NCBI GenBank assembly: GCA_018242665.1
Contig: JAFEBL010000013.1
Coordinates: 1 to 64,000, forward strand
Reading direction: 5' to 3'
DNA from: Nitrospira sp.
GTDB taxonomy: Bacteria; Nitrospirota; Nitrospiria; Nitrospirales; Nitrospiraceae
Length of the DNA: 64,000 nt
Shown here in pieces: positions 2,183 to 17,182 of this stretch (the first letter of the stretch is position 1; every line of letters starts with the position of its first letter). The position numbers and the translations under genes are program-made. The notes under the pieces were generated by a model. It was not told the origin of the DNA. It made no database searches and was given only the letters and a program-made list of their open reading frames with translations.

Positions 2183-2203
2183 GAATCGCTGCACAATAGA
2201 TTC

Positions 2204-2233
2204 GTTATACCCAATCTGGTGAAGACATAACAA
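2204..2233 (-). promoter_or_regulatory. sigma70-like promoter of the pseudo-caspase gene
   Basis: Minus-strand TTGTTA (2228-2233), an 18-base spacer and TATAAC (2204-2209). Predicted transcription start is near 2197, leaving a leader of about 15 bases before the ATG at 2182. This argues against the longer reading frame beginning at 2233. Confidence 0.5.
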
Positions 2234-2272
2234 CGGGGCCTCGCCGCGTTGACAGGTGCACCTCGCTCCGTT

Positions 2273-3190
2273 ATGGTCCAGCGCGTGGTTCCGACGAACG
2301 CATCGACCCGCTCTTCGCCACCGCCGTCATGGTCATGGGGCGCCGCTGCCGACTTGATTCGACTGCGCAACCAATCAGGCACCTGGCTGCTGATGTGGCC
2401 AAGCCTGTGGGCCCTAGTCCTCGCGAATCAGGGTCGTCCGCCTCTCTGGTTGATAGGCGTCTTCGTGCTGGGCTCGTTCCTGATGCGAAGTCTGGGCGTC
2501 GTCATCAACGACGTGGCTGATCGAAAATTCGACAAACACGTCGCACGCACCAGTCGTCGCCCATTAGCGTCGGGGAGATTAACCCTCGGACATGCCGTGA
2601 TCGTGGCTTCAAGCCTGACGGCGATGGCGGCGGTACTCGTCGGCATGCTCAATTGGGCAACCATCCGGCTCAGTCCGATTGCCCTTTTCTTGGCCGCCAT
2701 CTATCCATTTTGTAAACGGTGGATTCACGTGCCGCAGGCGGTCTTAGGCATCGCGTTCGGCTGGGGCGCCGTCATGGCCTGGGCCGCCTCGCGCGGGACC
2801 ATTGATCCGCAAGCCTGGTGGCTCTTTGGTGCAACCATCTGTTGGGCCATTGCCTACGACACGATTTATGCGCTGCAGGATCGTGAGGATGACCAGCGAA
2901 TCGGGGTGAAATCGTCGGCGCTGCTGTTTGGTTCTGCGGTTTCGCCCGCCGTGGGGATGTTCCTAACCGGGATGGTGGGCTGTCTGATTATGGCCGGACG
3001 CTTGTCCGGCCTCGGAATCGGCTACTATGCCATCCTCGCCCTGATCAGCGGGATCTTCCTCCGGCAGGTGCGGCGCTTACGGGTTCCGCTTGCGCCGCAC
3101 GAAGCCTTCGGTATGTTTTACGAACATGTGTATGTCGGAGCAGGCGTCCTGATGGCGCTCTGGATCGGCACAGTCGGAGGGACGCCCTAA
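2273..3190 (+). CDS. ubiA: UbiA-family prenyltransferase
   Basis: 305 aa integral membrane protein. It has both aspartate-rich prenyl-diphosphate motifs of the UbiA family: NDVADRKFDKHVARTSRRPL near residue 80 and YALQDREDDQRIGVKSSALL near residue 205, with about eight hydrophobic helices. The enzyme joins a polyprenyl tail to an aromatic quinone precursor. Family members closest to 4-hydroxybenzoate transferase (UbiA) and the futalosine-pathway enzyme MqnP share these motifs, so the substrate cannot be fixed from sequence; in a menaquinone-using Nitrospira the MqnP role is an attractive alternative. ATG at 2273 was preferred to an in-frame TTG at 2249. It converges with the dihaem cytochrome gene, stop to stop, one base apart. 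Confidence 0.88.
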   Translation: MVQRVVPTNASTRSSPPPSWSWGAAADLIRLRNQSGTWLLMWPSLWALVLANQGRPPLWLIGVFVLGSFLMRSLGVVINDVADRKFDKHVARTSRRPLASGRLTLGHAVIVASSLTAMAAVLVGMLNWATIRLSPIALFLAAIYPFCKRWIHVPQAVLGIAFGWGAVMAWAASRGTIDPQAWWLFGATICWAIAYDTIYALQDREDDQRIGVKSSALLFGSAVSPAVGMFLTGMVGCLIMAGRLSGLGIGYYAILALISGIFLRQVRRLRVPLAPHEAFGMFYEHVYVGAGVLMALWIGTVGGTP

Positions 3191-3191
3191 C

Positions 3192-4205
3192 CTATTCTTC
3201 GCTCACCTTGCCCAACGGCTTGTCCGGCTTCGGAGCCCGAAGGGTCTTCAGGTAGAGCGCCACCGCCTTGGCATCGGCGTCGTTCAGGCCCAAGCTCGGC
3301 ATACGAGTATCGGGCTTCATCGCTTGCGGGTTCCGCAGCCACCGATACACCCACGTCGGATTCAATCGATAGCCAGCCCGATCCAGGGCGGGGCCAACCT
3401 TTCCACCCTCTTCTCCGATCTTGTGGCAGCCATTGCACCCATACTTGGTCACATAGATTTGCTTGCCGACTTCGACGAGTTTCGCGGCAGCATCCGGCTT
3501 CATGTTCAAATCGGGCCGCGCAATGTTCACGCCCTTCCCTGGCCTGGTCGTAAAATTCGCAAGTGAGGCTGTGGCTTGGTCGAGCTCTTTTTTGGCCTGC
3601 CCCATCGCCTGCATTTCTTTGGCATAGGCATTGTCGTCGACTTCCACACCCTTTTTGTCGGCTTCGTCGCTGGCCTTCTTCTCGGCTTCCTGCTCCACAC
3701 GTTCCGCCTCTTTATACTTTTGCTCGGCGGATTGCTTGGCTTCTTGGAGTTCTTTCTTACGACCTTCGACGTTAAATTCCAATTTTTTGCCGTGCAAGGA
3801 GCGCACGTAGCCGACGATGCCCCAAACTTCTTCTTCGGAGAGCGTGTACTTAAACGTCGGCATGGTCGGGACGGCGAATTCATCATCCCCGATCTTGTCG
3901 CCATTCGGACTCGTGTCCTTCATATCGCGGGAGATCGTATTGAAGATGTCTTCGTCCTTGAACGTGCCCATTTCCGATTTGTTGGAGAGGTCTTTCGGCT
4001 TCGGGTCGGACATGGAGGACCAGTTAAAGCCCTCGTTCTGCTTGCCGGTTTCTCCGTGACAATGCATGCAATAGTGCGCATAGAGCTTCTTGCCCTTGGC
4101 GGCCTGTTCACTCTGCATCATCGAACAACCGGCACCGATGAGGCCCGAGAGGCCCACGACTCCGACGACCGCTCCAAAGACGCGTATTCTTCGCCACGCC
4201 CTCAT
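3192..4205 (-). CDS. dihaem c-type cytochrome lipoprotein with central coiled coil
   Basis: 337 aa, last gene of the respiratory operon. A hydrophobic signal ends in a lipobox (LIGAGC). The first haem site is YCMHCH near residue 45, with a methionine-bearing segment (VPTMPTF) as possible distal ligand; the second is GCNGCH near residue 265, with DTRMPSLGL as distal ligand. Between the two cytochrome domains is an 80-residue stretch very rich in Lys, Glu and Ala (about 120-200) predicted to be a coiled coil, which is unusual in a dihaem cytochrome. Start ATG at 4205 lies two bases after the stop of the NxrC-like gene, so the pair is tightly coupled. Probable membrane-tethered electron carrier facing the periplasm. 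Confidence 0.87.
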   Translation of the reverse strand: MRAWRRIRVFGAVVGVVGLSGLIGAGCSMMQSEQAAKGKKLYAHYCMHCHGETGKQNEGFNWSSMSDPKPKDLSNKSEMGTFKDEDIFNTISRDMKDTSPNGDKIGDDEFAVPTMPTFKYTLSEEEVWGIVGYVRSLHGKKLEFNVEGRKKELQEAKQSAEQKYKEAERVEQEAEKKASDEADKKGVEVDDNAYAKEMQAMGQAKKELDQATASLANFTTRPGKGVNIARPDLNMKPDAAAKLVEVGKQIYVTKYGCNGCHKIGEEGGKVGPALDRAGYRLNPTWVYRWLRNPQAMKPDTRMPSLGLNDADAKAVALYLKTLRAPKPDKPLGKVSEE

Positions 4206-4207
4206 GC

Positions 4208-5035
4208 TCACGACCCTTTCTTTAAACGTCTCACGAGGGCCATCTCGAATCCCAACGCGAGGCCTACCGCGAGTAATGCGTACATGTACGCCGAATAGTC
4301 CGCTGGCGCATCGGCACGGAAATACCACCAGGAGGAAATGGCTTTTTCAGAGCCCTTTTCTTTTGGCTGACCGCTGTCCATCTTTTTGCCGTCCCAGACC
4401 GCGAAGGCGATGCTGCCAAATTCGCCAAGCTTGAATTGGGTATCTTCCGCAACATGCTCCGTGTTCAATGGCCGCGAGAAGACGACCTTCCACACGCCGC
4501 CCTGGTAGACCCCCTTGGCCTTCACGTCCTGATGACTGTGTGGCTTGAGCGTGCCGAAACCCTTCGCGCCCAGGTCAGACCCTTTGCCGTCTTTATTTTT
4601 CCAGTACCAGATATTGACCGGCCCACCCTCGACCTGCGCCATGGGCTGACCGTGCGCGAAGTGCGCCTTGGTATCGCCGACCATGAACTCCAAGGCAGCC
4701 GCATCATCGGGATCCTCAGAGGGATCCGAATATTCCAGCATGATGGCGACGGTGGTTCCATCGTGGAGACCGCGGACCTTGACACTTTTCGCGGTCACCT
4801 CCGTGATTCGAACCGGCCAGTGGACCTGAGGAGACATGGGGAATTCAGACACGGAGGCAGTAGCCCATGCCGCTGCCGTGGGATCATCCGCCGGAAGGGA
4901 GCCCTTCACCAGTGCCGCGCGCACTGCGACGCTCTGCTGACTATAGGCGGGCTGTACTTCAGCAGCCATGCACAGCCCTAACAGGCCGACGGCTCCAACC
5001 CACCATCTCGTTCCTACGCTCCTCACTCGTGCCAT
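4208..5035 (-). CDS. NxrC-like / ethylbenzene dehydrogenase-type haem-binding subunit
   Basis: 275 aa with an N-terminal signal peptide (hydrophobic 14-30, AYSQQ cleavage region) and a C-terminal transmembrane helix (about 245-265). The body resembles the haem b-binding gamma subunit of type II DMSO-reductase-family enzymes (EbdC, ClrC, NxrC), with beta-rich segments and candidate Met/Lys ligands around HGQPMAQVEGG and WYWKNKDGKG. Nitrospira are known to encode several NxrC candidates, some away from nxrAB. Here no NxrA or NxrB is adjacent, so it may feed electrons into the neighbouring cytochromes instead of serving the nitrite oxidoreductase core. An AAGGGG ribosome site precedes the ATG. 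Family call good; partner uncertain. Confidence 0.75.
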   Translation of the reverse strand: MARVRSVGTRWWVGAVGLLGLCMAAEVQPAYSQQSVAVRAALVKGSLPADDPTAAAWATASVSEFPMSPQVHWPVRITEVTAKSVKVRGLHDGTTVAIMLEYSDPSEDPDDAAALEFMVGDTKAHFAHGQPMAQVEGGPVNIWYWKNKDGKGSDLGAKGFGTLKPHSHQDVKAKGVYQGGVWKVVFSRPLNTEHVAEDTQFKLGEFGSIAFAVWDGKKMDSGQPKEKGSEKAISSWWYFRADAPADYSAYMYALLAVGLALGFEMALVRRLKKGS

Positions 5036-5075
5036 ACGTTCCCCTTAATTGCTCAGCAGTCTCGGATCGGAGACA

Positions 5076-5801
5076 TTACTCGGACTCATCCCAGGTCCTC
5101 GGTTTCTGTCCAGCTCCGTCATATTCGCCCATGATCACTTTCCAGATGTCCTCATCAGACATTTCCATTTCCCATCGAGGCATGGCCGTTTTCCATGGCA
5201 TCCCTTCGACCGGAAGGCCGACGCCTCCCTTCTTGATCCGCCAGAACAGATAACTTTCCTGCAACATGGCGATCGTCGTCGGATCCTTAAAGTTGGCCGG
5301 CGGCGGCGTAAATCCAGCGGCCGCGAACCCTTTGCCATCAAAATTGCCGTGGCAGGGCGCGCAACGCGAGGCATATAAGCCTTTGCCGTACATAATATTC
5401 TCGGGCGTTTTCGGGACTGGGTTGGAGAGTCCAGTGTATTCGCCGGGAGGAGCAGGGTGGATCGTGCGATTTTCACCAGGGGGGGCGTCGCTCGAAGCCG
5501 TGCTGCCATAGGTCTGCCATCCCACGAGAATCGGGAACAGGGCCAACACGAGATACCGCGCGCTACTGAGCGCTCCGCCGCTCTCACCGGTCAGGAAGCG
5601 GAGGATCGGTTGAAAGAAAGCATCTTTCGATTCGCCGCTTAAAGTGGCAAACAGCACCGAACCTGACATCACCAGCATCAGGTACAGAAAGATCAAACTC
5701 GAAGGCAGCGGCGCACTGTGCGGCAAGATCGGGACAATAAATTTCAAGAACAGATAGATACAGACCGTCAGTATGATTGGTCTGATAAGTACGCCTCCCA
5801 T
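5076..5801 (-). CDS. membrane-anchored monohaem cytochrome c
   Basis: 241 aa. Three hydrophobic helices (about 5-25, 33-55 and 82-100) anchor a C-terminal cytochrome c domain with one haem site, RCAPCHGNFDGKG near residue 145, and a distal-ligand candidate in EGMPWKTAMP near residue 205. The domain resembles the class of caa3/cbb3-type membrane cytochromes. A strong ribosome site (GAGGAGGAAGG) directly precedes the ATG. Genes on both sides lie within 30-40 bases, so it belongs to the respiratory operon. Likely an electron carrier between the bc complex and its partners. Confidence 0.85.
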   Translation of the reverse strand: MGGVLIRPIILTVCIYLFLKFIVPILPHSAPLPSSLIFLYLMLVMSGSVLFATLSGESKDAFFQPILRFLTGESGGALSSARYLVLALFPILVGWQTYGSTASSDAPPGENRTIHPAPPGEYTGLSNPVPKTPENIMYGKGLYASRCAPCHGNFDGKGFAAAGFTPPPANFKDPTTIAMLQESYLFWRIKKGGVGLPVEGMPWKTAMPRWEMEMSDEDIWKVIMGEYDGAGQKPRTWDESE

Positions 5802-5831
5802 ACCTTCCTCCTCTGCTTCACCGACAATAAC

Positions 5832-6452
5832 TTATCGTGCCTGCGCCACCGCAACGGTGCCGGCATCCGCAGCCTTCACCGGAGCCGGGGTGGCACGGGG
5901 AATGTCTAGTTCCGAGGGGCTCACGCTGATGGGCTCGCCACTCATTTGTTGCAAGAACGCGATAACCGAAAGAATTTCGTTCTTCGACAGACCGATAGGA
6001 TTTCTATTGATGTACGGCATGCGGGCCGGATATTCCTTCGGGATCCCCTCATGTCGGTAGTCCAGATACAGATAGGCTTGCGGTTCCGTCAGGCTCTCAA
6101 AAATGAACTCGCGTGAGAGTTTCGCGCCGATACCTTTGAGGTCTGGACAGCGGGCCGATTCGCTCGGACCAATGGAATGGCAGAGGGCACATTGCCCCTT
6201 GCTGAAGAAGATCTTCTGTCCGATCGAAGCCATGTCCGTCGGGGTCTTGATGTCGGCGATATTGATGCTCTCTTCCGCCGGGGGCAACGACGCCATCTGA
6301 GGGACGGCCAGGGCAACCAGTGAGAATAAGCCGAGCACGATCGCCACAAAGCCGATGACCCGGAGAAACTGCCCCTTGATGAAGAGCAGAATCACGATTC
6401 CCAGGCCGACGACACAGAGACCGATTAGCTGCAATTTGACTACTTCACTCAT
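5832..6452 (-). CDS. membrane-anchored monohaem cytochrome c
   Basis: 206 aa. Two N-terminal hydrophobic helices (about 8-25 and 30-50) are followed by a single haem-c site, QCALCHSIG near residue 90, and an ARMPYINRNP segment near 143 that can supply the distal Met. The C-terminus is Ala/Pro-rich. The ribosome site GAGGACTT precedes the ATG. Embedded between the second bd-like gene and another cytochrome c gene in the operon. Confidence 0.85.
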   Translation of the reverse strand: MSEVVKLQLIGLCVVGLGIVILLFIKGQFLRVIGFVAIVLGLFSLVALAVPQMASLPPAEESINIADIKTPTDMASIGQKIFFSKGQCALCHSIGPSESARCPDLKGIGAKLSREFIFESLTEPQAYLYLDYRHEGIPKEYPARMPYINRNPIGLSKNEILSVIAFLQQMSGEPISVSPSELDIPRATPAPVKAADAGTVAVAQAR

Positions 6453-6517
6453 AAGTCCTCAACAAAGGATAATGATCACGGCTTCTTCTGTGTATCAGAA
6501 GAAGATCGTCTACCCGA

Positions 6518-8398
6518 TCAGACCGGACGCTGCCCCTCAGATGCTTCGGTCGCTGGGGCATCCAACGCAGGCGACCCGCCCGCCATGGCCGGAATCCGGC
6601 CTGGCTCGGCAGAGCCCTTTGCACTGGCTGCCGCCTTGGCCTTGTCTCCCATGGTGGCGACCCAGAAAATGAACGCCACAAGCATGCAGAACAGGAATGT
6701 GTTAAGCGCCATCAACGCGGCGGCGTAACCGAGCGCAGGAGAGAAGGCGTACTGAGAAGAATCACGCATGACGCCATAGACATGCCAATGAACACGCGAC
6801 GAGGAACGGGCATACCCCATCAAGGTCATCAGCAGAATGACCATGACCGCGTTCAAGACCAGCGAATAGCCGGCGCGAGGGGGCATCTTGCCCCAGACCA
6901 TTTCAGTGGTAGTCTTTGCACTTTTCAGCAGCAGCGCCGTCAGCGGGGTGATCGTCAACATAACGAAAATCACGATGCCGACTTGCGAGGTTGAGAAGTA
7001 GTTGATGCGGATGATGGCCGGGACAAAGTATCCCCAGACGCCGAGCACGATCACGGCGATTCCCGCCAGCACCAGTACGGCCCCCATCACGGACTTCGCC
7101 ACTTTCGCCCAGCCGGCCGTGTCTTCCTTGCCTGCACGCCAGTACATAATGAAGCTCATGAATGTCACGAGCACCATCAGATTCGAGACTGTCATCTTCG
7201 CCGACATGACACCAAATACACCCAAGAGTGGATGGTGCGTGCCGCCCATTTTCTGAGCTTCTTCGAGACTGGCAACCAGTGAATGCGGCGTCATCCAGAC
7301 GGCGAGACACAACAGCAGGATGATCAACATCGCCATGATCGGCTTTCGATACTGGCCCTCGGATCCCGGTATTCGATGAGTAATCCCCATCCAAAAATAA
7401 TAGTTGGATCCGAGGAATAACACTCCGATCAGCATGGCCTGCAGGATGAACAACCAGGAGAGGAATCCGCCCATGAGCGTGATGCCCATCTGTTGGTTGT
7501 ACTGGTAGATTTCCCGCATCAACCAATAGCCAGCGAAAGGCAGGGGCAACAAACCGAACACGCCGATAAAGTTCCCGACGTAGCCCATCCAGTCGTAGTG
7601 ATAACGTTCTTCAGCGCTTTTGGCCGACAGGTAGCGAATACCCGCATAGGCTCCGCAGATGTAGCCGCCAAGCACCACGTTGGCGATGATGCGATGGATG
7701 TTCACCGGCCACCAGGTGGGATTCCAGGTCGCGGCCCAGGCTCGTTCGAAATCTGTGCCTTCGGCGATAACCACCGGGCTCGCCTGGAAGGTGGCCCACG
7801 AGTTGGGAACGATCATGATGAAGAAGGCGAAGACGTTCAACAGGAAGCCCAAAAAGATATGGAATTTTTTCCCATTGCCCTCGGACATGGCGTCCCAACC
7901 GTACCAGTAGAGGTACAGCGTGGCGGTTTCCACGAGGAACAATCCGCAGTAGACGAGGAATGAGGGGAAAAAGATGTCGGTCAAATAGGCCATCAGTTTC
8001 GGATAGAAGCCGATCAAGAGGAACAGCAAGATTCCACCAAACAACGCGGTGGTGGCGTAGGACGAGGTGAGCAGCTTGGTGAACTCTTTGGCCAACTTAT
8101 CGTAGCGCTTGTCGCCGGACTTCCAACCGACGACTTCGCACAACCAGGCAAAAATCGGCACACCCAGCACGAAGCCGGCGAGAAGGAGATGCAGCTGCGC
8201 GATGATCCACACGAGATTGCGGCTTCCAACATAGGGGATGTCCCGATAGGCGGTGGGTGCTTGGGCAGCCGCATCTTGGGCCATGGCCAAGTCCGGTATG
8301 CCCATCCAGCCGAGCACTGCGGCACATCCGGCCAGCAAGGCCACAGGCCCTGCGGTGTGGCGCACCTGATTATCGATCGTCCGCCCTTGGTTCATCAT
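6518..8398 (-). CDS. cytochrome bd-like subunit I homologue (bd-like II)
   Basis: 626 aa, about 14 hydrophobic helices, with a signal-like N-terminal helix ending LAMAQDAAAQ. It is a distant CydA relative: AQLHLLLAGFVLGVPIF carries the position of CydA His19 and PVNIHRIIANVVLGG the position of His186, and an acidic residue (LFLVETATLYLYW) matches the CydA proton-path helix. The GWxxxExGRQPW quinol loop is missing and no cydB is nearby. This fits the Nitrospirota-type bd-superfamily branch thought to lack a quinol site. The C-terminus is longer than in its paralogue at 12371. Start chosen at 8398 because GAGGTG lies six bases upstream; 8395 or 8425 are alternatives. Catalytic role (oxygen reduction or electron transfer) unproven. 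Confidence 0.78.
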   Translation of the reverse strand: MMNQGRTIDNQVRHTAGPVALLAGCAAVLGWMGIPDLAMAQDAAAQAPTAYRDIPYVGSRNLVWIIAQLHLLLAGFVLGVPIFAWLCEVVGWKSGDKRYDKLAKEFTKLLTSSYATTALFGGILLFLLIGFYPKLMAYLTDIFFPSFLVYCGLFLVETATLYLYWYGWDAMSEGNGKKFHIFLGFLLNVFAFFIMIVPNSWATFQASPVVIAEGTDFERAWAATWNPTWWPVNIHRIIANVVLGGYICGAYAGIRYLSAKSAEERYHYDWMGYVGNFIGVFGLLPLPFAGYWLMREIYQYNQQMGITLMGGFLSWLFILQAMLIGVLFLGSNYYFWMGITHRIPGSEGQYRKPIMAMLIILLLCLAVWMTPHSLVASLEEAQKMGGTHHPLLGVFGVMSAKMTVSNLMVLVTFMSFIMYWRAGKEDTAGWAKVAKSVMGAVLVLAGIAVIVLGVWGYFVPAIIRINYFSTSQVGIVIFVMLTITPLTALLLKSAKTTTEMVWGKMPPRAGYSLVLNAVMVILLMTLMGYARSSSRVHWHVYGVMRDSSQYAFSPALGYAAALMALNTFLFCMLVAFIFWVATMGDKAKAAASAKGSAEPGRIPAMAGGSPALDAPATEASEGQRPV

Positions 8399-8426
8399 GC
8401 TTGTCACCTCGTCGTGCGCCATCATG

Positions 8427-9446
8427 TCACTTACTCCCCGCCGGTTTTCCGACTGCTGGTTGCGAAGCCTTGGCCTCGTTCTTTGCGGCTCCGTCTTTGA
8501 CAGTGGCTTTGTCTTTTCCGCCCTTTTGCTTTTCTTTTTCCTCTTCAGCCGTCTTCTGCTCAAGTGCGGCGATCTTGAGCTCTGCGTCTTTGAATGTCTT
8601 CTCGTCCTTCGACAGGGTTTTTTGAGGATCAAACGGTGGGGCCACGGTCACGGCCGCGGGCTTACAACATTCGTGCGGATGCGGCGTGGACACGGGCAAC
8701 ACCATCCAGAAGATCACACTCAACACTGCGCCGGCACCGGTGAACGCGGTCAGCATCAAACTCTGGTCGGTCGGCACACGAAACATGTCCCAGCGCCAGA
8801 TGAGCTCTTGATAGGTGTCCGATGCGGGCTGTGCTCCGCTCGTCCGGCCTTCAACCAGTTTTCCGAGAATGGTGAGACCGATATAGGTGAGCGCAATCAA
8901 GACCAGCAGCGACACACTCCCCCAAGCGGTAAACTCCAGGCCAATCCGTTCCGCAACCGGCATATGCTTCAACATGTCCAGGTCCAGAATGGATTTGGTG
9001 ATTGAGCGGGCCAGGTCTGTCGCACCACCTTCTATCACCCACAACAGCGGAAGATAGAGGGCGCCGGCGATGGCGAATCGCACCCACAAACCGACACCGA
9101 GCGAATCCGGTGGCTCCAGTCGCAGGCGTTCCAGAAACACCGTGCGAGCAACCAATCCAAGGGACCAGATATCGATCGGAATTGAGATCAAAAACAGGAG
9201 AGGAAGCCCCGTGCCTTCACCGAAATGAAAGCCGGTCGTGAGCGTAATCAGGAAGAATCCAAAGACGCTCACTGGACTCATCAGTAGCATCAGGAAGGTG
9301 ATCCCGAGCTTGGTTTCCAGATGGATCGTGCCCATCGCCATGAACAACATGGCAAATGCCATCTTGATCGGCAGAGCGGTCCAGCAGGCAGGCCAGAGAA
9401 TGCTAAGCCCCAACTTGAATGACGACATCGTCTCTCGACCAGTCAT
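8427..9446 (-). CDS. integral membrane protein of unknown family in the respiratory operon
   Basis: 339 aa. I do not recognise a family. It has about six hydrophobic helices in residues 10-250, a soluble loop (about 195-220), then a short HPHECC cluster near residue 256 that looks suited to metal binding, and finally a 70-residue Lys/Glu/Ala tail likely to form a helix or coiled coil. Its place between cytochrome b and the second CydA-like gene suggests it is a structural subunit, perhaps taking the place of CydB or of a small complex III subunit. A GGAGGG site ten bases upstream supports the ATG at 9446; an ATG at 9428 is possible. Confidence 0.7.
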   Translation of the reverse strand: MTGRETMSSFKLGLSILWPACWTALPIKMAFAMLFMAMGTIHLETKLGITFLMLLMSPVSVFGFFLITLTTGFHFGEGTGLPLLFLISIPIDIWSLGLVARTVFLERLRLEPPDSLGVGLWVRFAIAGALYLPLLWVIEGGATDLARSITKSILDLDMLKHMPVAERIGLEFTAWGSVSLLVLIALTYIGLTILGKLVEGRTSGAQPASDTYQELIWRWDMFRVPTDQSLMLTAFTGAGAVLSVIFWMVLPVSTPHPHECCKPAAVTVAPPFDPQKTLSKDEKTFKDAELKIAALEQKTAEEEKEKQKGGKDKATVKDGAAKNEAKASQPAVGKPAGSK

Positions 9447-9464
9447 GTGCCCAAGACCCTCCGC

Positions 9465-10580
9465 CTAATCCAAAAATTCGCGGTTGATGATTGCCGCCAC
9501 GGTAAAAATCAAAATACTCGCCATGACCACGATCCAGCTAATCAAGGCGATCGGCCGCTTGAAGATGTTCCGCTCAGGGTCGCGGTCGATGAACGGCAAT
9601 GCTGCCAGAAGCGCCATGAACGCACCCGGGAGGGCAATGGCCCCGAGGAACTGCCCGAACTCTCCGGCGAACACCTTTAGACGCAACAGCTGGAAGAGGA
9701 ACAGGAAATACCATTCCGGTTCAGGATGATAATCACCGGGATCCGGCGTCGCTTCCTCCAGGAGGACAATAGGCTCCCAAAACGCGAGGCTGCAAATGCA
9801 GAGGAATACCGCAACCATTCCGACAATGTCTTTCCAGATCTGGCGCGGAAAGAAATAATCCGTCTTGGCCTTGATCTCTTCCACACTTCCACGGAACGGA
9901 CCCGCTGGACCAGCCTTGCGGAACAAGAAGAGATGCAAACCGGCTAAGCCCATGAGTGCGGCTGGCAAGACCATGACGTGAATGACGAAGAAGCGACTCA
10001 GGGTCATTTGACCAGGTGTGGCACCGCCCTTGAGAAAGCGAGCCATGAAATCGCCGAGGAGCGGCGTCTTGTCCATGATTTCGACGCCGACCGTGGTGGC
10101 CCAGTAAGCCCGTTGGTCCCATGGAAGCAAGTAGCCCGTGAAGCCGAAGCCCATCACGATGCCAAACAATGCGAGTCCGACCAACCAGATGAGCTCTCGC
10201 GGTTTCTTGTAGGCTCCCCAGAGAAAGACTTGGGACATGTGCGCGAACACACAGACCACCATGGCTGTTGATCCCCAGAAGTGGTAACTCAACAGGAACC
10301 AGCCATAGTCCACCGTGTGAATGATGTACTGCGTGCTGGCATAGGCGTGGTCGGCAGTCGGCACGTAATAGAACATCAACAAAATGCCGGTCACCGCCTG
10401 CATGATGAAGATGAACAACAGGACAGAGCCAAAGACATAGGCCCACCGGGACCCGCCTGGGACGGGCTCATTGAGCATTTTGGCCTGCAAGGTCTTTAGC
10501 CCGACGCGTTCGTCGACAAAGGCAAAGACTTTTTCAATAGCTGATGGCTGCGTCGTTGTCGGCTGCGTAGTCGTATCCAT
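9465..10580 (-). CDS. cytochrome b of bc complex (b6/f-like haem spacing)
   Basis: 371 aa. Haem-ligating His pairs are in SYHFWGSTAMVVCVFAH (13 residues between) and FFVIHVMVLPAALMGLAGLH (14 between); the 14-residue gap in helix D is typical of the cytochrome b6 type. The Qo-site PEWY motif is present in DYHPEPEWYFLF. About eight helices, so it combines the b6 core with most of subunit IV. It oxidises quinol and passes electrons to the Rieske protein and to low-potential haems. The start codon overlaps the Rieske stop (TAATG), implying translational coupling. Confidence 0.93.
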   Translation of the reverse strand: MDTTTQPTTTQPSAIEKVFAFVDERVGLKTLQAKMLNEPVPGGSRWAYVFGSVLLFIFIMQAVTGILLMFYYVPTADHAYASTQYIIHTVDYGWFLLSYHFWGSTAMVVCVFAHMSQVFLWGAYKKPRELIWLVGLALFGIVMGFGFTGYLLPWDQRAYWATTVGVEIMDKTPLLGDFMARFLKGGATPGQMTLSRFFVIHVMVLPAALMGLAGLHLFLFRKAGPAGPFRGSVEEIKAKTDYFFPRQIWKDIVGMVAVFLCICSLAFWEPIVLLEEATPDPGDYHPEPEWYFLFLFQLLRLKVFAGEFGQFLGAIALPGAFMALLAALPFIDRDPERNIFKRPIALISWIVVMASILIFTVAAIINREFLD

Positions 10581-11527
10581 TAGACAATCCGAACCTGGGC
10601 CTTGGTGCCCGCCTTGAATTCCATATCAATAATGGTGATGTCACCGGTTGCCGTAACCTTGATCGGAAGGGGGTCCAACGGCCGTGGGGCTGGACCATCG
10701 AGCACCTTGCCGGCCGCGTCGTAAATGCTCAAGTGACACGGGCAAAGAAACACCTGCCCGAGCGTTTTATGCGTCCGCCACTTAAAGCCGCAGCCCAGAT
10801 GGGGGCATTTACCTGAATAGGCGATATAGGGAACGTCTTTCTTATTTGTCCAGATATGTTTTCCGACCGAATCGCGGAATTCCATGTCCTTCCCTTGATA
10901 GATCGACTCCAGCACCTTGGGAGTCGCTTTCAAGACCCAGACGTTCTTATCGATTTCCTGTTCCGGCATGTAGGCTTCTTTGATCTTGCGCTTGTACTTG
11001 TATTGCACGCCGACATCATCCTGCTTGATCTTCCCGGAATTCCCGATCTTGAGCCACTCATTGTCGAACGGCGAATACATCGGCTTCATGAGGTAGCGCA
11101 GCACGGGGAACGCCAGAGGGAATCCGATCAAAAACCCGATGGCATGCGTGAAGTTCGCGAAGAAGGTCCGGCGCTTGACGCTTCGTTCCAATTCAGGGAA
11201 CGGCACCAACACTTCGCCGGGTGTGACATGGATCCGATCTTCGAGGTGAGCGATCTCCACCTCGTGGGTCGTGACATATTCGTCGCGCTTAAAGGCAGGG
11301 AGGGTCGCGTAGTCTGCCACACTAAGCCGCAGCACCACCGCATCTTCTGTCACGGTCTGGACCTGCCCCATAGGGACCTGTCGCTCCGGCGCATCCCCGG
11401 GACCGCCGCCCACGACAATATGGCTGATTTCGTGGGAGAGCGGGTCCATGATGACCCGGCGGACTTCCCCGACTTCACCGTCCGTACATCGAACTTTTGA
11501 TTTGAGTTTCGGCTGCATCATACTCAC
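10580..11527 (-). CDS. Rieske iron-sulfur protein with N-terminal PRC-barrel domain
   Basis: 315 aa. The C-terminal Rieske fold has CPHLGC (241-246) and CPCHLS (262-267), giving ligands Cys241, His243, Cys262 and His265 and a disulfide Cys246-Cys264. A single membrane helix spans about 124-146 and is preceded by a KRR-T-F-F sequence resembling a Tat motif. Residues 1-115 form a separate beta-rich domain with the pattern of a PRC barrel (GEVGEVRRVIMDPLSHEISH, then RQVPMGQV), which would remain in the cytoplasm. Standard Rieske proteins lack this part. It overlaps the upstream cytochrome c gene by ATGA and the downstream cytochrome b gene by TAATG. Confidence 0.92.
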   Translation of the reverse strand: MSMMQPKLKSKVRCTDGEVGEVRRVIMDPLSHEISHIVVGGGPGDAPERQVPMGQVQTVTEDAVVLRLSVADYATLPAFKRDEYVTTHEVEIAHLEDRIHVTPGEVLVPFPELERSVKRRTFFANFTHAIGFLIGFPLAFPVLRYLMKPMYSPFDNEWLKIGNSGKIKQDDVGVQYKYKRKIKEAYMPEQEIDKNVWVLKATPKVLESIYQGKDMEFRDSVGKHIWTNKKDVPYIAYSGKCPHLGCGFKWRTHKTLGQVFLCPCHLSIYDAAGKVLDGPAPRPLDPLPIKVTATGDITIIDMEFKAGTKAQVRIV

Positions 11528-12330
11528 TTCATCTTGATCGGCTTCGGAGTATTCACCGAAGCGTTCTTATATCCAGCCAACCAGGCCGCCAATGCATCCA
11601 CGTCCTTGGGCTCCATCAGGTCCTTATACTTGTCGGGCATCTTGCCCTTCTCGTACTCCTGCTCGAACCCTTCTGCCTTGTAGCTCTTTGGATCGAGAAT
11701 CTTTCTGGCGATTTCTGCAGCCGGCAGAAGGTTGCCGATGTTATCGAGCTCAGGACCGCGCTTCTTGCCGCCTTCCCCGTTGAGCTTGTGGCAGTTGTAG
11801 CATTCCTGGAGCTGCCATTGCTCTTCACCGAGCTTGGCAATATCGCCACTCGCCGCACCCGTGGTCGCGGTCGGCGCGCTGTCGCCGCCGGCTTTCTGAT
11901 CGGCCGGTGCCTGGGCGGCACCCAACGCTTGCAACCGGGCGGTAAGCTCTTTCGCCTTTTCGTCGAGTGCCTTCGCACGCTGCATCAGCACTTCGACCTT
12001 ACCGGCTTCATAGTGCTCGCGCTTCGGCTTGAGGATTTTTTCGATCTTGCCCTTCTCATCCTCCGGATCATACTGCGGCCACATCGCTCCAACCGCTATA
12101 TAACTCGCCGAAAGAATGACGTAGAACACCAGCAAGGCTCCGACGGCCTTCACCCCTCCAAATGGCTTGAGCGCAGGAAGGTCGAGAATCATAAAGACAA
12201 TGGCGCCGAGCATGGCGTATCCGAAAAACAGCGCCTGAAAGACGAACGGAAAGCCCAGCGCATTGGTGGCGCCGAACAGGATTCCGCCGACGACGACTCC
12301 TACTACTAGCTTTTTAATAATGTTTCCCAT
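11524..12330 (-). CDS. membrane-bound monohaem cytochrome c of the bc complex
   Basis: 268 aa. Three N-terminal hydrophobic helices (about 5-25, 31-50 and 62-83) are followed by a charged helical stretch (KIEKILKPKREHYEAGKVEV and onward, about 93-140), an Ala/Thr linker and a cytochrome c domain with one haem site, ECYNCHKLNGEGG near residue 178, and distal Met in KGKMPDKYKD. Placed directly before the Rieske gene with a 4-base overlap, it is the best candidate for the cytochrome c1/f-equivalent subunit, though its sequence is unlike either. A GAGGGC ribosome site lies before the ATG. Confidence 0.87.
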   Translation of the reverse strand: MGNIIKKLVVGVVVGGILFGATNALGFPFVFQALFFGYAMLGAIVFMILDLPALKPFGGVKAVGALLVFYVILSASYIAVGAMWPQYDPEDEKGKIEKILKPKREHYEAGKVEVLMQRAKALDEKAKELTARLQALGAAQAPADQKAGGDSAPTATTGAASGDIAKLGEEQWQLQECYNCHKLNGEGGKKRGPELDNIGNLLPAAEIARKILDPKSYKAEGFEQEYEKGKMPDKYKDLMEPKDVDALAAWLAGYKNASVNTPKPIKMK

Positions 12331-12370
12331 GAATGCCCTCGTTTACCGCCCTTCCAGTATGGTGACCGCC

Positions 12371-14074
12371 CTACTTGGCCCCTGCCGGAACCGGGCTTCC
12401 CTCGTGCGCATGGCCCTTTGAATCAGATGGGCGCAAGGTGACGATGATCGCGAAGCTGACAACTGCATAAAAGACAATGGTAATGCCAGTAATCCACCAA
12501 GCTGAGTACGAGAGAGTCGGCGTGAAGGACTCGGCGGTGAAATCCGGCAACAGGTTGTACGTATGAAAGTACTTCCGCAAGAGCGATCGCACAGCGCCCA
12601 TCAGACCCATGGTCCAAATTGCGCTAAACGCGAGGAAGACCAGCACGAACTGCGAGGCGAAGTCGATCTTGCCCCATACGATCGTCCCTTGCGATACGGC
12701 TCGATTGTAGATCACATAGTTCACGACGGTGACAAACACAAGTGTGAACGCGGCAGAGTTCTTCGCCGGCATCAACGCAAGGAAGTTCCAATCCGACGGC
12801 AATTCCAGTTCAGCGACCAGCTTGGCGCCAGTCGGCACGAATCCATGCGGCGTCATCCAGATTGCATTCCCCACAACCACCATCAGGAAGCCGATCTTGA
12901 TGACCGTGCTGGATGACACCGTCAACGGGATAAAGCGGCCGAGAATCGCCGGCGCTAGCAGCAGGGGCAACAGGACCGCCAGGGACGTAGGATCCGGCAC
13001 TGGATAGTCTGTCAGCACCTTGGTCATGACGATCGGGAGCAGCACCATCACCATCGGCGCCACCACCGTCATGCGAACTCGCTCCACGCCTTCGATGCGC
13101 TTCATGCTCAACCAGATATAGTAATTGCTGGCCAAGAAGATCAGGCCGATCATAGCCCCCTGCATTTCAAAGAACATCGACAACTGGTCAGCCATCATGT
13201 ACGGACAGATAGAGGCGTCGTAATCGCACAATTCATAGGCGAGCAAGTAGCCCATGAACGGCAGGAACAGCAGCGCTCCCACGCCGATCATGTTGCCGAC
13301 AAATCCCATCCAGTCGTAATAGGCCCGATCTTCTTCCTTCTTCGAACCCATGAACATATAGGCCGCGATGAGTCCGGCCACGAAACCACCGAACGTCACG
13401 TTGCCGACTAAGCGGTGCAAATTGAGCGGCATCCAGCTGTAGTTGAAGACCTTATCCCAGAGAGAGGCCGTCGCCAGAAACTCCGCTGGCGAAATACCCT
13501 CGGCCCGCACCGGCGTGTTCATAAAGGAGGTCGGTGCATCGATCACAAACAGGGTGATCGACCCGATGAGATTGAGCAGCACACCCAACGCGATGTGGCG
13601 CGCCTTCTTCTCACCCTTCCACGCATCCCACGTGTAGAAATACATGTACAGGACGATCGTTTCCCCGATGAACAAGAGGGGATACACCACGGCGAAGATC
13701 AGGAAGAAGTGATTGATGAGCCAGGTCGTAAACTGCGGATAGGTGGCGAGCAGCACGAAAATAAAGAGACCACCGGTCAGTGCGGTCATACTGTACAGGA
13801 TGACCGTCACCTTCGTGACCTCTTTCGCCAATCGGTCGTAGCGAGGATCTTGCTTGCGATACCCCAACCATTCCGAAATCACCACGAAAATCGGGGCGCC
13901 CAGAATGAATCCCGCAAACAGAATGTGGAGCTGAGCGACGATCCATACCGCCGTGCGATTCCCCGTATAGGGGAATTCCACAGGGGGCGCACTGGGAGCT
14001 TGGGCGTAGGCCACCCCTCCCAATACCGCCACTAGCGCGAACATGACCAACAAACAGCGCTGCCAGATTTTCAT
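12371..14074 (-). CDS. cytochrome bd-like subunit I homologue (bd-like I)
   Basis: 567 aa, about 14 hydrophobic helices and a signal-like N-terminus ending VAYAQAPSAP. It shares blocks with the paralogue at 6518: VWIVAQLHILFAGFILGAP, PLNLHRLVGNVTFGG, YYDWMGFVGN, ASNYYIWLSM and IWMTPHGFV. CydA His19 and His186 equivalents and a helix glutamate (LLFIGETIVLYMYF) are present, but the GWxxxExGRQPW quinol loop is absent and no CydB follows. It is therefore probably not a standard quinol oxidase. The gene lies second in the operon, next to the bc complex genes. GGAGGAGCGG upstream supports translation. Confidence 0.78.
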   Translation of the reverse strand: MKIWQRCLLVMFALVAVLGGVAYAQAPSAPPVEFPYTGNRTAVWIVAQLHILFAGFILGAPIFVVISEWLGYRKQDPRYDRLAKEVTKVTVILYSMTALTGGLFIFVLLATYPQFTTWLINHFFLIFAVVYPLLFIGETIVLYMYFYTWDAWKGEKKARHIALGVLLNLIGSITLFVIDAPTSFMNTPVRAEGISPAEFLATASLWDKVFNYSWMPLNLHRLVGNVTFGGFVAGLIAAYMFMGSKKEEDRAYYDWMGFVGNMIGVGALLFLPFMGYLLAYELCDYDASICPYMMADQLSMFFEMQGAMIGLIFLASNYYIWLSMKRIEGVERVRMTVVAPMVMVLLPIVMTKVLTDYPVPDPTSLAVLLPLLLAPAILGRFIPLTVSSSTVIKIGFLMVVVGNAIWMTPHGFVPTGAKLVAELELPSDWNFLALMPAKNSAAFTLVFVTVVNYVIYNRAVSQGTIVWGKIDFASQFVLVFLAFSAIWTMGLMGAVRSLLRKYFHTYNLLPDFTAESFTPTLSYSAWWITGITIVFYAVVSFAIIVTLRPSDSKGHAHEGSPVPAGAK

Positions 14075-14141
14075 GATGTCTCGCCGCTCCTCCTCATTCC
14101 AACCGATTGACCCGTGACTCGAACCGCACCGCAGGCGCGAG

Positions 14142-14645
14142 TTACTTCACCTGATCCGCGGGCACCCAATCCTTCTTGTTGACATCCCAGCCCTTGCCGG
14201 CCAAGCCGAAGGAGCGTTCGAACGCCAGGATCTTCCATCGATCTTCTTCGGACAACTTGCTCTTCCACGGCTTCATCTTGGTGTTCGGCACCCCCTCGGA
14301 AATGCGCCAGAACCAGACGGAGTCCGAATACATCTTCATGCGGTCGCCGACACGGAAATCACGTGCACCAGCCTTCACCGGCTTCCCATCCTTGCCATGG
14401 CAGCTCGCGCAGTTCACATCGGGATTCTTTCCACCGATGTACAGCTCTTTGCCTTCCTCGAGGATCTTCGGGTCCGTCCACCATCCGGCAGGCATATGCT
14501 TGTCGGCATATTCGGCAGGAGCAGGAGGTGGCGGAACAACCGGCCCCTCGCCGCCGCCTTCACCACCACCGCATCCGACCACCCCGAAGCCGAACCCCAG
14601 AATGCCGACCATCAGAGCCACTCTCTTCATGCCTGCCTGTTTCAT
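14142..14645 (-). CDS. monohaem cytochrome c lipoprotein, first gene of respiratory operon
   Basis: 167 aa. The N-terminal hydrophobic segment ends in GVVGCGGGEGGGEG, a lipobox followed by a Gly-rich spacer, so it should be tethered to a membrane on the periplasmic side. The haem-c site is NCASCHGKDGKPVKAGARD near residue 88, and NTKMKPWKSKLSEED near 127 supplies a distal Met. The start at 14645 sits 13 bases after an AGGAG; ATG at 14630 is an alternative. It opens the eleven-gene run and is preceded by a hairpin and by the terminator of the upstream gene. Confidence 0.85.
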   Translation of the reverse strand: MKQAGMKRVALMVGILGFGFGVVGCGGGEGGGEGPVVPPPPAPAEYADKHMPAGWWTDPKILEEGKELYIGGKNPDVNCASCHGKDGKPVKAGARDFRVGDRMKMYSDSVWFWRISEGVPNTKMKPWKSKLSEEDRWKILAFERSFGLAGKGWDVNKKDWVPADQVK

Positions 14646-14713: not shown

Positions 14714-14764
14714 AAAAAAAAGACGCTCCCCTGAGGCGCACACCGCAGCCTCAGCAAAAGCGTC
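14714..14764 (-). terminator. intrinsic (rho-independent) terminator
   Basis: On the minus strand an outer stem GACGCT/AGCGTC (14759-14764 with 14722-14727) encloses an inner stem CTGAGGC/GCCTCAG (14748-14754 with 14731-14737), followed at once by eight T (14714-14721). It ends the transcript of the gene at 14857-15390 and separates it from the respiratory operon. Confidence 0.85.
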
Positions 14765-14856: not shown

Positions 14857-15390
14857 CTATTTCTGCCGCTTGCCCTGTCCCTTCCTTCGCCGCTGCTCTT
14901 CACGCATCCGCTTGCGGGAGATCTTTAGCCCAATCCATCCCACAATAGCAACAGCCGCAATCCCCAGCCCATACAACAACCACTGCGGAGGACCGAGATC
15001 GCGTTCGCACCCACTACCGAAATCAACCCGAAGCTTCCGCTCGGTCTCCAGATCGTTTGGATCGAACTGGATTTTTAGATTTTGCTGCTCCCCGCCGGTC
15101 TCAACGAGCAGCGGGTCGCCGACATTGTCATTATGAAGATGCAGGGTGACTTTATAGTACCCGTCACCATCGGTCTCCACGGTTTGACCGACCGTGATTC
15201 GAGTGTCCTTGACCAGCACCTCAACCTTGGTGCTGGGGCGGCCGTCTTTGCCGCAGACAAATCCCTCGACGGTAAACCGATGGTCGGCTGCATGGCTCGC
15301 CAACAACACCGAAGGAACGAGCAACGCGCCGATGACTCCCCAACAGGCATGCCGGACGGAACGACGCTCGATTCTCTTCCGTCCTTCCAT
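14857..15390 (-). CDS. exported/membrane protein with carboxypeptidase-regulatory-like domain
   Basis: 177 aa. A basic N-terminus and hydrophobic stretch (about 17-32) form a signal peptide or anchor. The middle (about 38-125) is a small beta-sandwich like the carboxypeptidase regulatory domain: FTVEGFVCGKDGRPSTKVEV, then TDGDGYYKVTLHLH. A transmembrane helix (about 138-157) and a very basic cytoplasmic tail (RKRMREEQRRRKGQ) end the protein. The start is placed at 15390 because the promoter at 15498-15526 rules out the longer frame to 15507; ATG 15432 is also possible. It has its own promoter and terminator, so it is likely monocistronic. Function unknown. Confidence 0.7.
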   Translation of the reverse strand: MEGRKRIERRSVRHACWGVIGALLVPSVLLASHAADHRFTVEGFVCGKDGRPSTKVEVLVKDTRITVGQTVETDGDGYYKVTLHLHNDNVGDPLLVETGGEQQNLKIQFDPNDLETERKLRVDFGSGCERDLGPPQWLLYGLGIAAVAIVGWIGLKISRKRMREEQRRRKGQGKRQK

Positions 15391-15497
15391 GTAGAACGCC
15401 CGCGCCGGACTCGTTATTGGCCTCACCCACATCTCAAGAAACGCTATGCTCCGAGAGGCCGCTTCGACACGGACTCGCGCCAATTTTGAGGCGGACT

Positions 15498-15526
15498 CTT
15501 CTAGCATAGCCCCCCCTCTTTGTCAA
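15498..15526 (-). promoter_or_regulatory. strong sigma70-like promoter with extended -10
   Basis: Minus-strand TTGACA (15521-15526), a 17-base spacer and TAGAAG (15498-15503) preceded by TG, an extended -10. Predicted start near 15491. It drives the gene at 14857-15390 and shows that the in-frame ATG at 15507 lies upstream of the transcript. Confidence 0.7.
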
Positions 15527-16165: not shown

Positions 16166-17182
16166 CTATCGCGCGTTGGGCAGCAGGGTAATCTTCACGG
16201 TTTTCGTGAAGCCCGACAAGGAACCGAAGGTATCCTCCACGGCGGAGGCCTCATAGCCGCAGTGCACCATGCAATCGGCGCACTTTTCATTCCGGCCGGT
16301 ACCATAGGCATCCCAATCGGTCTTCTCCATCAGTTCTCGAAAGCTTGGCGCGTACCCCTCCTGCAACAAATAGCAGGGCCGCTGCCACCCGAAGACGTTG
16401 TACGTGGGGTTGCCCCAGGGTGTGCACTGATACTGGCGCCGTCCCATCAGAAACTCCAGGAACAGGGGGGACTGGTTGAATTGCCAGTCGCGCTTGCGAT
16501 TGCTCAAAATCTTCGAGAACAGTTCCGTCGTGCGGCTGCGCTTGAGAAAGTGTTGTTGATCCGGGGCTTTTTGATAGCTATAGCCCGGCGAGATCATCAT
16601 GCCTTCGACGCCGAGCCCCATCATTTCATCGAAGAACTTCCGCACGCGTTCCGGGTTGGCGTCGTCGAACAACGTCGTGTTCGTCGTGACGCGATGGCCC
16701 CGCTTCAGCGCCGCCTTGATGGCCTTCACAGCCACGTCGTACACCCCGTCGCGACAGACCGCCAGATCGTGCTCATCCCGCAGACCATCCATATGGACGC
16801 TGAACGTCAAAAACTTCGACGGCGGATAGTCGTCGAGCTTGCGCTCCATCAAGATGGCGTTCGTGCAGAGATATACGTACTTCTTGCGCTCTACGAGGCC
16901 GCGCACGATCTCGGGCATTTCCGGATGGATCAGCGGTTCGCCGCCCGGAATACTGATAATCGGGGCCGCGCACTCGTCTGCGGCCGCCCAACATTGCGCC
17001 GGGGTCAACCGCTTATCCAGCACATGATCCGGATACTGAATCTTGCCGCACCCCGCGCAGGCGAGATTGCAGCGAAATAACGGCTCGAGCATCAGCACGA
17101 GCGGATACCGCTTGACCCCCCGGAGCTTCTGGGTCAACACGTACTTCGTCACTGTATACATCTGGGAGACTGGAACAGCCAT
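16166..17182 (-). CDS. hpnH: adenosyl-hopene transferase, radical SAM (HpnH)
   Basis: 338 aa. Radical SAM cluster motif CNLACAGC near residue 38, GGEPL near residue 80, and a C-terminal Cys group (NEKCADCMVHCGYEA near 300) as in HpnH. HpnH adds an adenosyl group to diploptene, the first step in making extended C35 hopanoids. Length and the PHLMLEP-like start (PLVLMLEPLFRCNLAC) agree with the family. AGGAG lies six bases before the ATG, and a promoter is visible upstream. The squalene-hopene cyclase and hpnG lie 32 kb away in this window, so the pathway is split over at least two loci. Confidence 0.95.
   Translation of the reverse strand: MAVPVSQMYTVTKYVLTQKLRGVKRYPLVLMLEPLFRCNLACAGCGKIQYPDHVLDKRLTPAQCWAAADECAAPIISIPGGEPLIHPEMPEIVRGLVERKKYVYLCTNAILMERKLDDYPPSKFLTFSVHMDGLRDEHDLAVCRDGVYDVAVKAIKAALKRGHRVTTNTTLFDDANPERVRKFFDEMMGLGVEGMMISPGYSYQKAPDQQHFLKRSRTTELFSKILSNRKRDWQFNQSPLFLEFLMGRRQYQCTPWGNPTYNVFGWQRPCYLLQEGYAPSFRELMEKTDWDAYGTGRNEKCADCMVHCGYEASAVEDTFGSLSGFTKTVKITLLPNAR

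What the first reader, a model, noticed from the sequence alone, without database searches (positions are those of the whole stretch)
3192..14645. Eleven-gene respiratory operon joining a bc complex, two CydA-like proteins, five cytochromes c and an NxrC-like subunit
Seen: all genes run on the minus strand with short gaps or overlaps (ATGA at 11524-11527, TAATG at 10580), after a clear terminator at 14714. Known: complex III genes normally stand alone or with one cytochrome c. Inference: the products may form a supercomplex that moves electrons between quinone and periplasmic cytochromes, including uphill electron flow for a nitrite oxidiser. No heme-copper oxidase or CydB is present, so it is not a plain terminal-oxidase operon. 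This is my main candidate for an undescribed system.
Basis: partly seen in the sequence, partly recalled or inferred. Interest (0 to 1): 0.8.

Follow-up and report, generated by a model that had tools for sequence, protein, structure and literature searches.

The report
Nitrospira complex III and oxidase operon
This is the conserved gene cluster in which nitrite-oxidising Nitrospira keep a quinone/cytochrome bc complex together with their unusual oxygen-reducing enzyme; it was described in 2019, so it is not a new system, although its enzymes have apparently never been purified and relatives carry gene fusions that sharpen the proposed mechanism.

Summary
Eleven minus-strand genes (3192-14645) encode a Rieske/cytochrome b pair, two CydA-like proteins (A and B), five cytochromes c, an NxrC-like protein and one membrane protein without known relatives. 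The system is not undescribed. Mundinger et al. 2019 (PMC6606698) reported the same cluster in N. moscoviensis (CIII_1, bd-like_1, bd-like_2 as putative complex IV, alt_nxrC_1, several cytochromes c) and proposed a complex III-IV supercomplex contacting nitrite oxidoreductase. The argument that it holds no terminal oxidase fails: A and B resemble the OR-N bd-type proteins thought to be cytochrome c:O2 reductases. They keep key heme ligands, lack quinol-site residues, and this genome has no heme-copper oxidase, CydB or canonical CydA.

What I add: gene order is collinear in 80/80 named loci, including the N. defluvii chromosome. The cluster joins two separable modules (A plus bc; B plus cytochromes c plus NxrC-like). 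B is fused to the neighbouring cytochrome c in nine relatives from about five families. The Rieske carries an N-terminal PRC-like extension. The ubiA gene lies convergently next door in 56/57 loci. Related lineages carry the cluster without a detectable Nitrospira-type nxrA. Supercomplex formation and O2 reduction remain untested.

The parts
14142..14645 (-). c1: monoheme cytochrome c with an N-terminal lipobox (C25), 167 aa
   Evidence: PF13442 1.8e-8; CXXCH at 79; C25 and heme motif conserved in 51 sequences
12371..14074 (-). CydA-like A (bd-like_1 by elimination), 567 aa, about 13 TM helices; OR-N-like
   Evidence: PF01654 3.1e-23; H50, H220, E138 match E. coli H19, H186, E107; quinol-site K252/E257 absent; M435 aligns with M393, tentative
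11524..12330 (-). c2: three TM helices plus monoheme cytochrome c; candidate c1/f-type subunit of the bc complex (inference)
   Evidence: PF00034 1.6e-10; CXXCH at 177, TM scan
10580..11521 (-). Rieske [2Fe-2S] subunit with an N-terminal PRC-barrel-like extension before its TM helix, 313 aa
   Evidence: PF00355 1.2e-8; invariant C239, H241, C244, C260, C262, H263; PRC E 3.5e-4, 21.0 bits, just under cut-off, 14 of 36 orthologues at E<=0.01
9465..10580 (-). cytochrome b, b6-type, 371 aa
   Evidence: PF00033 1.1e-47, PF00032 3.3e-9; invariant H100/H114 and H201/H216, P288-E289-W290-Y291
8427..9446 (-). U339: unannotated membrane protein (about 6 TM) with conserved TPHPH motif
   Evidence: no Pfam or NCBIfam hit; 43 positions at >=95% conservation in 40 orthologues; no PDB sequence or fold match
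6518..8425 (-). CydA-like B (corresponds to bd-like_2, the published putative complex IV), 635 aa; OR-N-like
   Evidence: PF01654 3.4e-12; H79, H244, E166 conserved, quinol residues absent; fused to c3 in nine relatives
5832..6452 (-). c3: two TM helices plus monoheme cytochrome c; part of the same polypeptide as B in several relatives
   Evidence: PF00034 1.7e-7; fusions
5076..5801 (-). c4: about three TM helices plus monoheme cytochrome c
   Evidence: PF13442 5.5e-9; CXXCH at 147
4208..5035 (-). alt_NxrC_1-like: EB_dh / type II DMSO reductase gamma-like protein with C-terminal TM helix
   Evidence: PF09459 8.7e-20; TIGR03477 104 bits, below its 169.85 cut-off
3192..4205 (-). c5: diheme cytochrome c with lipobox (C27)
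   Evidence: PF00034 2.7e-19, two stretches; CXXCH at 46 and 257
14714..14764 (-). intrinsic terminator that separates the operon from the upstream genes
   Evidence: sequence
2249..3190 (+). ubiA (4-hydroxybenzoate polyprenyltransferase), convergent conserved neighbour, not in the operon
   Evidence: TIGR01474 284.7 bits over 275.45; same place in 56/57 loci
14857..15507 (-). conserved upstream neighbour: secreted protein with weak CarboxypepD_reg similarity, not in the operon
   Evidence: beside c1 in most loci

Best explanation
This is the complex III / complex IV cluster of Nitrospirales. Shown here: a bc-type pair (Rieske plus b6-type cytochrome b with intact ligand motifs) and two OR-N-like CydA homologues lie in one strictly conserved gene order with five cytochromes c and a membrane-anchored NxrC-like protein. 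Inferred: periplasmic electrons from nitrite oxidoreductase (directly, or via the NxrC-like protein and c5/c4/c3) reach B, which reduces O2 as a cytochrome c oxidase. A minor share is driven backwards by proton motive force through the bc complex to the methyl-plastoquinone pool to make low-potential reductant. With low-potential donors the bc complex runs forward and passes electrons to the same cytochromes and oxidase. A is either the partner CydA' of B or a dedicated subunit of the bc module; the data do not decide. Physical assembly into one supercomplex is unproven.
For: The cluster and the III-IV supercomplex proposal are in PMC6606698, with high transcription in N. moscoviensis. OR-N1/OR-N2 CydAA' as proposed cytochrome c-oxidising O2 reductase: PMC12342949, PMC10839748. 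Heme ligands kept and quinol residues lost in 45 A and 52 B sequences. This genome: four CydA-like proteins, no COX1, no CydB, no canonical CydA; in the order, 33 of 110 sampled genomes have neither COX1 nor CydB matches, including closed G040 and G082, which both carry nxrA. B fused to c3 in nine loci. Order collinear in 80/80 named loci. PEWY motif, Rieske S265/Y267, the measured methyl-plastoquinone at +57/+59 mV (PMC12324825) and ubiA next door fit a high-potential quinone.
Against: No OR-N enzyme was found to have been purified or assayed in the papers read. E. coli E445 (heme b595 ligand) is not conserved in A or B, so the third heme site must differ. A second complex III (cytochrome b at G000:C17) exists, so this bc complex is not the only candidate for either direction. 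No direct evidence of physical association. nxrA and nxrB were not found in this draft assembly, so electron donation from nitrite here rests on relatives.
Confidence: 0.7

Rival explanations
1. One reading: no terminal oxidase; the complex only moves electrons between quinone and periplasmic cytochromes, mainly uphill.
For: Both CydA-like proteins are divergent and keep only part of the canonical ligand set. Related bd-like proteins are reported in anammox bacteria and Nitrospina, where an ACIII-like quinone role was discussed (PMC3578206).
Against: Without O2 reduction by these proteins, genomes lacking COX1 and CydB (33 of 110), including this one, have no recognised terminal oxidase. Quinol-site residues are absent. 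B is fused to cytochrome c, not to a quinone-reactive domain.
Confidence: 0.12
2. A and B form one heterodimeric CydAA' oxidase (OR-N1/OR-N2), and the bc genes are only co-regulated neighbours.
For: Proposed in PMC12342949 and PMC10839748. A and B are separate clades that always share the cluster in the named loci.
Against: B and its c3/c4/NxrC-like module occur without A in several families (L073-L077, L203, L204, L207). A is embedded with c2, Rieske and cytochrome b and occurs with them without B in G139; in G007 the two modules lie on different contigs.
Confidence: 0.35
3. A is a structural or electron-transfer subunit of the bc module, and B alone with c3 is the oxidase.
For: Module distribution and B-c3 fusions.
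Against: A keeps the same aligned heme-ligand residues as B, so it is not visibly degenerate. A without B rests on one 90%-complete MAG.
Confidence: 0.35
4. The cluster is only an operon for coordinated expression; bc complex, oxidase and cytochromes act separately through diffusible cytochrome c.
For: Modules can be unlinked (G007) and no interaction data were found.
Against: Strict order over the whole order and recurrence of a different Rieske/cytochrome b pair beside the B module in other families (L203, L204, L207) suggest more than co-expression, but do not prove contact.
Confidence: 0.35

Closest known systems
CIII_1 / bd-like_1 / bd-like_2 / alt_nxrC_1 region of Nitrospira moscoviensis (Mundinger et al. 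2019, PMC6606698)
   Same: Same set: Rieske, cytochrome b, two bd-like proteins, NxrC-like protein and several cytochromes c, with two cytochrome c genes between bd-like_2 and alt_nxrC_1 exactly as B, c3, c4, NxrC-like here.
   Different: Nothing essential; the N. moscoviensis sequence itself was not examined here. The N. defluvii chromosome has the same order (L129).
OR-N cytochrome bd-type oxygen reductases (CydAA')
   Same: CydA fold family, no CydB, no quinol-site residues, cytochromes c alongside.
   Different: Clade placement against the published tree could not be checked; function untested. B fused to a cytochrome c is documented here in relatives, not in the window.
Cytochrome bc1/b6f complexes and III-IV supercomplexes of Corynebacterium, Mycobacterium and Pseudomonas
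   Same: Rieske, b6-type cytochrome b and cytochrome c with an oxidase (works-like comparison).
   Different: The oxidase is bd-type, not heme-copper; Rieske has an N-terminal PRC-like extension; extra membrane subunit U339; no structural or biochemical evidence.
TO_1-TO_4 clusters of Candidatus Manganitrophus (PMC9040806)
   Same: bd-like proteins with cytochrome b/c or complex III components.
   Different: Different gene sets; identity of my f11/f12 loci with these named clusters was not verified.

Membership tests
OR-N type (CydA-like) bd oxygen reductase | Homology to CydA (PF01654) | tested here: met
   A 82.5 bits, B 46.1 bits against a cut-off of 26.2
OR-N type (CydA-like) bd oxygen reductase | Conserved heme ligands H19, H186, M393 (E. 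coli numbering) | tested here: met
   H50/H79 and H220/H244 in all aligned sequences; M435/M407 by a weaker C-terminal alignment
OR-N type (CydA-like) bd oxygen reductase | Loss of quinol-binding residues (K252, E257) | tested here: met
   Replaced by I/M and M in A and B
OR-N type (CydA-like) bd oxygen reductase | No CydB partner | tested here: met
   No PF02322 match in the genome
OR-N type (CydA-like) bd oxygen reductase | Placement in OR-N1/OR-N2 clades of the reference tree | not testable with these tools
   Murali et al. 2021 not held; A and B form two clades here
OR-N type (CydA-like) bd oxygen reductase | O2 reduction with cytochrome c as donor | not testable with these tools
   Needs biochemistry; B-c3 fusion is indirect support
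Canonical quinol-oxidising cytochrome bd (CydAB) | CydB partner, quinol-binding residues and heme b595 ligand E445 | tested here: not met
   No CydB; K252, E257 and E445 not conserved; an invariant His (A H504, B H548) lies four residues after the R448-equivalent
bc1/b6f complex (complex III) | Rieske cluster ligands | tested here: met
   C239, H241, C260, H263 plus C244 and C262 invariant
bc1/b6f complex (complex III) | Four heme-ligand His and the Qo PEWY motif in cytochrome b | tested here: met
   H100/H114, H201/H216, PEWY 288-291 invariant
bc1/b6f complex (complex III) | Dedicated c-type subunit | tested here: inconclusive
   c1 and c2 are adjacent candidates; assignment is inference
NxrC / type II DMSO reductase gamma subunit | Match to the curated gamma-subunit model | tested here: inconclusive
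   EB_dh over cut-off, TIGR03477 104 bits under 169.85
Respiratory III-IV supercomplex | Physical association | not testable with these tools
   Only gene order and fusions available

The most novel reading that the evidence does not exclude
A bd-type, not heme-copper, III-IV respiratory supercomplex: CydA-like A is a built-in subunit of a PRC-Rieske bc complex, and B with its tethered cytochrome c3 is the oxidase, so that electrons entering from the periplasm are split within one assembly between O2 and uphill quinone reduction.
Probability: 0.25. Interest if true: 0.75.

Novelty: already known. Interest (0 to 1): 0.33.

Why it matters
Nitrospira drive much of the world's nitrite oxidation, yet how they reduce O2 and push electrons uphill is unproven. 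The cluster and the supercomplex idea are published. The module split and the B-cytochrome c fusions found here turn the question of which CydA-like protein is the oxidase, and what feeds it, into a direct test with defined proteins.

Tried and rejected
Considered chance or local gene order: rejected, collinear in 80/80 named loci. Considered a nitrite-specific cluster: class-level genomes with the cluster gave no nxrA match; TIGR03479 alone was a poor proxy because only five candidates per genome were scored. U339: AlphaFold model of middling confidence (pLDDT 73) with no fold match; it is not recognisably CydB. Profile alignment of B to canonical CydA failed (one column) and that of A was weak, so C-terminal ligand mapping is tentative. 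PRC assignment of the Rieske N-terminus is marginal, and the Foldseek rows shown were Rieske-type hits. Lucker 2010 and Murali 2021 were not held, and no complexome data on Nitrospira turned up. Counting G023 as B without A: withdrawn, because the contig starts at c2.

Full report
OBSERVATION. The eleven genes are present as described on the minus strand. In transcription order: c1 (lipoprotein-like monoheme cytochrome c), CydA-like A, c2 (three TM helices plus monoheme c), Rieske, cytochrome b, U339 (unannotated membrane protein), CydA-like B, c3, c4, an NxrC-like protein with C-terminal TM helix, c5 (diheme). Gaps run from -1 to 67 bp. A strong terminator hairpin lies between the operon and its upstream neighbours. 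One detail is off: 11527-11524 reads GTGA, and the conserved Rieske start is the ATG at 11521.

ALREADY DESCRIBED. Mundinger et al. 2019 (PMC6606698) report that N. moscoviensis encodes complex III copy CIII_1 (Rieske and cytochrome b) in one highly expressed region with bd-like_1, bd-like_2 (putative complex IV), alt_nxrC_1 and several cytochromes c, with two cytochrome c genes between bd-like_2 and alt_nxrC_1. They proposed a III-IV supercomplex that might contact nitrite oxidoreductase. That gene set and the B-c3-c4-NxrC arrangement match the window, so B corresponds to bd-like_2 and A, by elimination, to bd-like_1. Later papers assign such proteins to the OR-N branch of the bd superfamily and propose an OR-N1/OR-N2 CydAA' cytochrome c:O2 reductase (PMC12342949, PMC10839748); PMC3578206 notes conserved heme ligands and missing quinol-binding residues in bd-like proteins. 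I could not read Lucker 2010 or Murali 2021.

OXIDASE OR NOT. In 45 A and 52 B sequences the E. coli ligands H19 and H186 are matched by invariant His (A H50, H220; B H79, H244), E107 by near-invariant Glu, and M393 tentatively by M435/M407, while quinol-site K252 and E257 are absent. E445 is not conserved; an invariant His lies nearby. The genome (99.9% complete) has four CydA-like proteins, two here and two on contig C49 beside a diheme NxrC-like gene, and no COX1, CydB or canonical CydA. Across 110 sampled genomes of the order, 33 have neither a COX1 nor a CydB match, among them closed genomes G040 and G082, which carry nxrA. Alternative oxidase and other classes were not searched.

CONSERVATION AND MODULES. 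All 80 named loci keep the order: 56 complete, 24 cut by contig ends, none rearranged; they include the N. defluvii chromosome FP929003.1 (L129). The full set, with U339 weak or missing, also occurs outside the order in families f5 and f8 (L041, L067, L070, L071). Two modules can separate. G007 has c1-A-c2-Rieske-cytb-c5 and B-c3-c4-NxrC on different contigs; G139 (90% complete) has the A/bc module and no B orthologue; several families have the B module with no A orthologue. In nine loci from about five families B is fused to c3 in one polypeptide (L067, L074, L076, L203-L208), which supports cytochrome c as its electron donor. In L203, L204 and L207 a different Rieske/cytochrome b pair stands beside the B module. 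In a tree A is one clade (support 0.996) and B with the C49-type paralogues another (1.0).

BC MODULE. Cytochrome b keeps H100/H114 and H201/H216 and a PEWY motif; the Rieske keeps all cluster ligands and S265/Y267. By general knowledge S/Y and PEWY accompany higher-potential quinones; Nitrospira have methyl-plastoquinones with measured potentials of 57 and 59 mV (PMC12324825). The Rieske has an N-terminal extension that weakly matches the PRC barrel (21.0 bits against 21.2; 14 of 36 orthologues at E<=0.01). U339 has no sequence or fold relatives found. A second cytochrome b exists on contig C17.

NEIGHBOURS. ubiA (TIGR01474 over cut-off) is convergent with c5 in 56 of 57 loci long enough to show it, and in class-level L041, where ubiD follows. 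An hpnH gene and two small conserved genes lie upstream of the terminator.

MECHANISM. Most likely B is a cytochrome c oxidase fed by c3 and the other periplasmic cytochromes, with the bc complex exchanging electrons between the same cytochromes and methyl-plastoquinone, in reverse during growth on nitrite. The role of A is open between CydA' partner of B and bc-module subunit. The NxrC-like protein may dock nitrite oxidoreductase, but relatives with the cluster and no detected Nitrospira-type nxrA suggest a more general role. Assembly into a supercomplex is unproven.

VERDICT. New here are the order-wide synteny count, the module split, the B-c3 fusions, the PRC-like Rieske extension and the ubiA linkage; I did not find these in the papers read, but did not search for each.

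Noticed in passing
2249-3190 (+): ubiA (4-hydroxybenzoate polyprenyltransferase) is convergent with c5, 1 bp apart, and holds this place in 56/57 Nitrospirales loci; possible link to methyl-plastoquinone synthesis.
   Followed up: partly
L067, L074, L076, L203, L204, L205, L206, L207, L208: CydA-like B and cytochrome c3 are one fused polypeptide (784-836 aa, stop to stop) in relatives of about five families.
   Followed up: yes
10580-11521: Rieske protein with N-terminal PRC-barrel-like domain ahead of its TM helix, conserved across the order and class.
   Followed up: partly
8427-9446: Membrane protein without any family hit; conserved TPHPH motif that could bind metal; C-terminus variable.
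   Followed up: partly
16166-17182: hpnH (adenosyl-hopene transferase, TIGR03470) conserved upstream of the operon.
   Followed up: no
L031 (G000:C49): Second cluster with two more CydA-like proteins, cytochromes c, a diheme NxrC-like protein and two FGE-sulfatase-domain proteins; corresponds to the published bd-like_3/bd-like_4 cluster.
   Followed up: partly
genome G000: nxrA and nxrB of the N. defluvii type were not found in this assembly; probably a draft gap or withheld stretch.
   Followed up: partly
G055:C1:1449709-1450182 and similar places in about 15-30 genomes: Weak COX1 matches (E about 1e-4 to 1e-12) in frames of about 430-460 aa, perhaps a divergent heme-copper superfamily member in some Nitrospirales.
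   Followed up: no
236-2233 (-): Conserved protein with weak caspase-like match (NF047832, 26 bits against 140).
   Followed up: no
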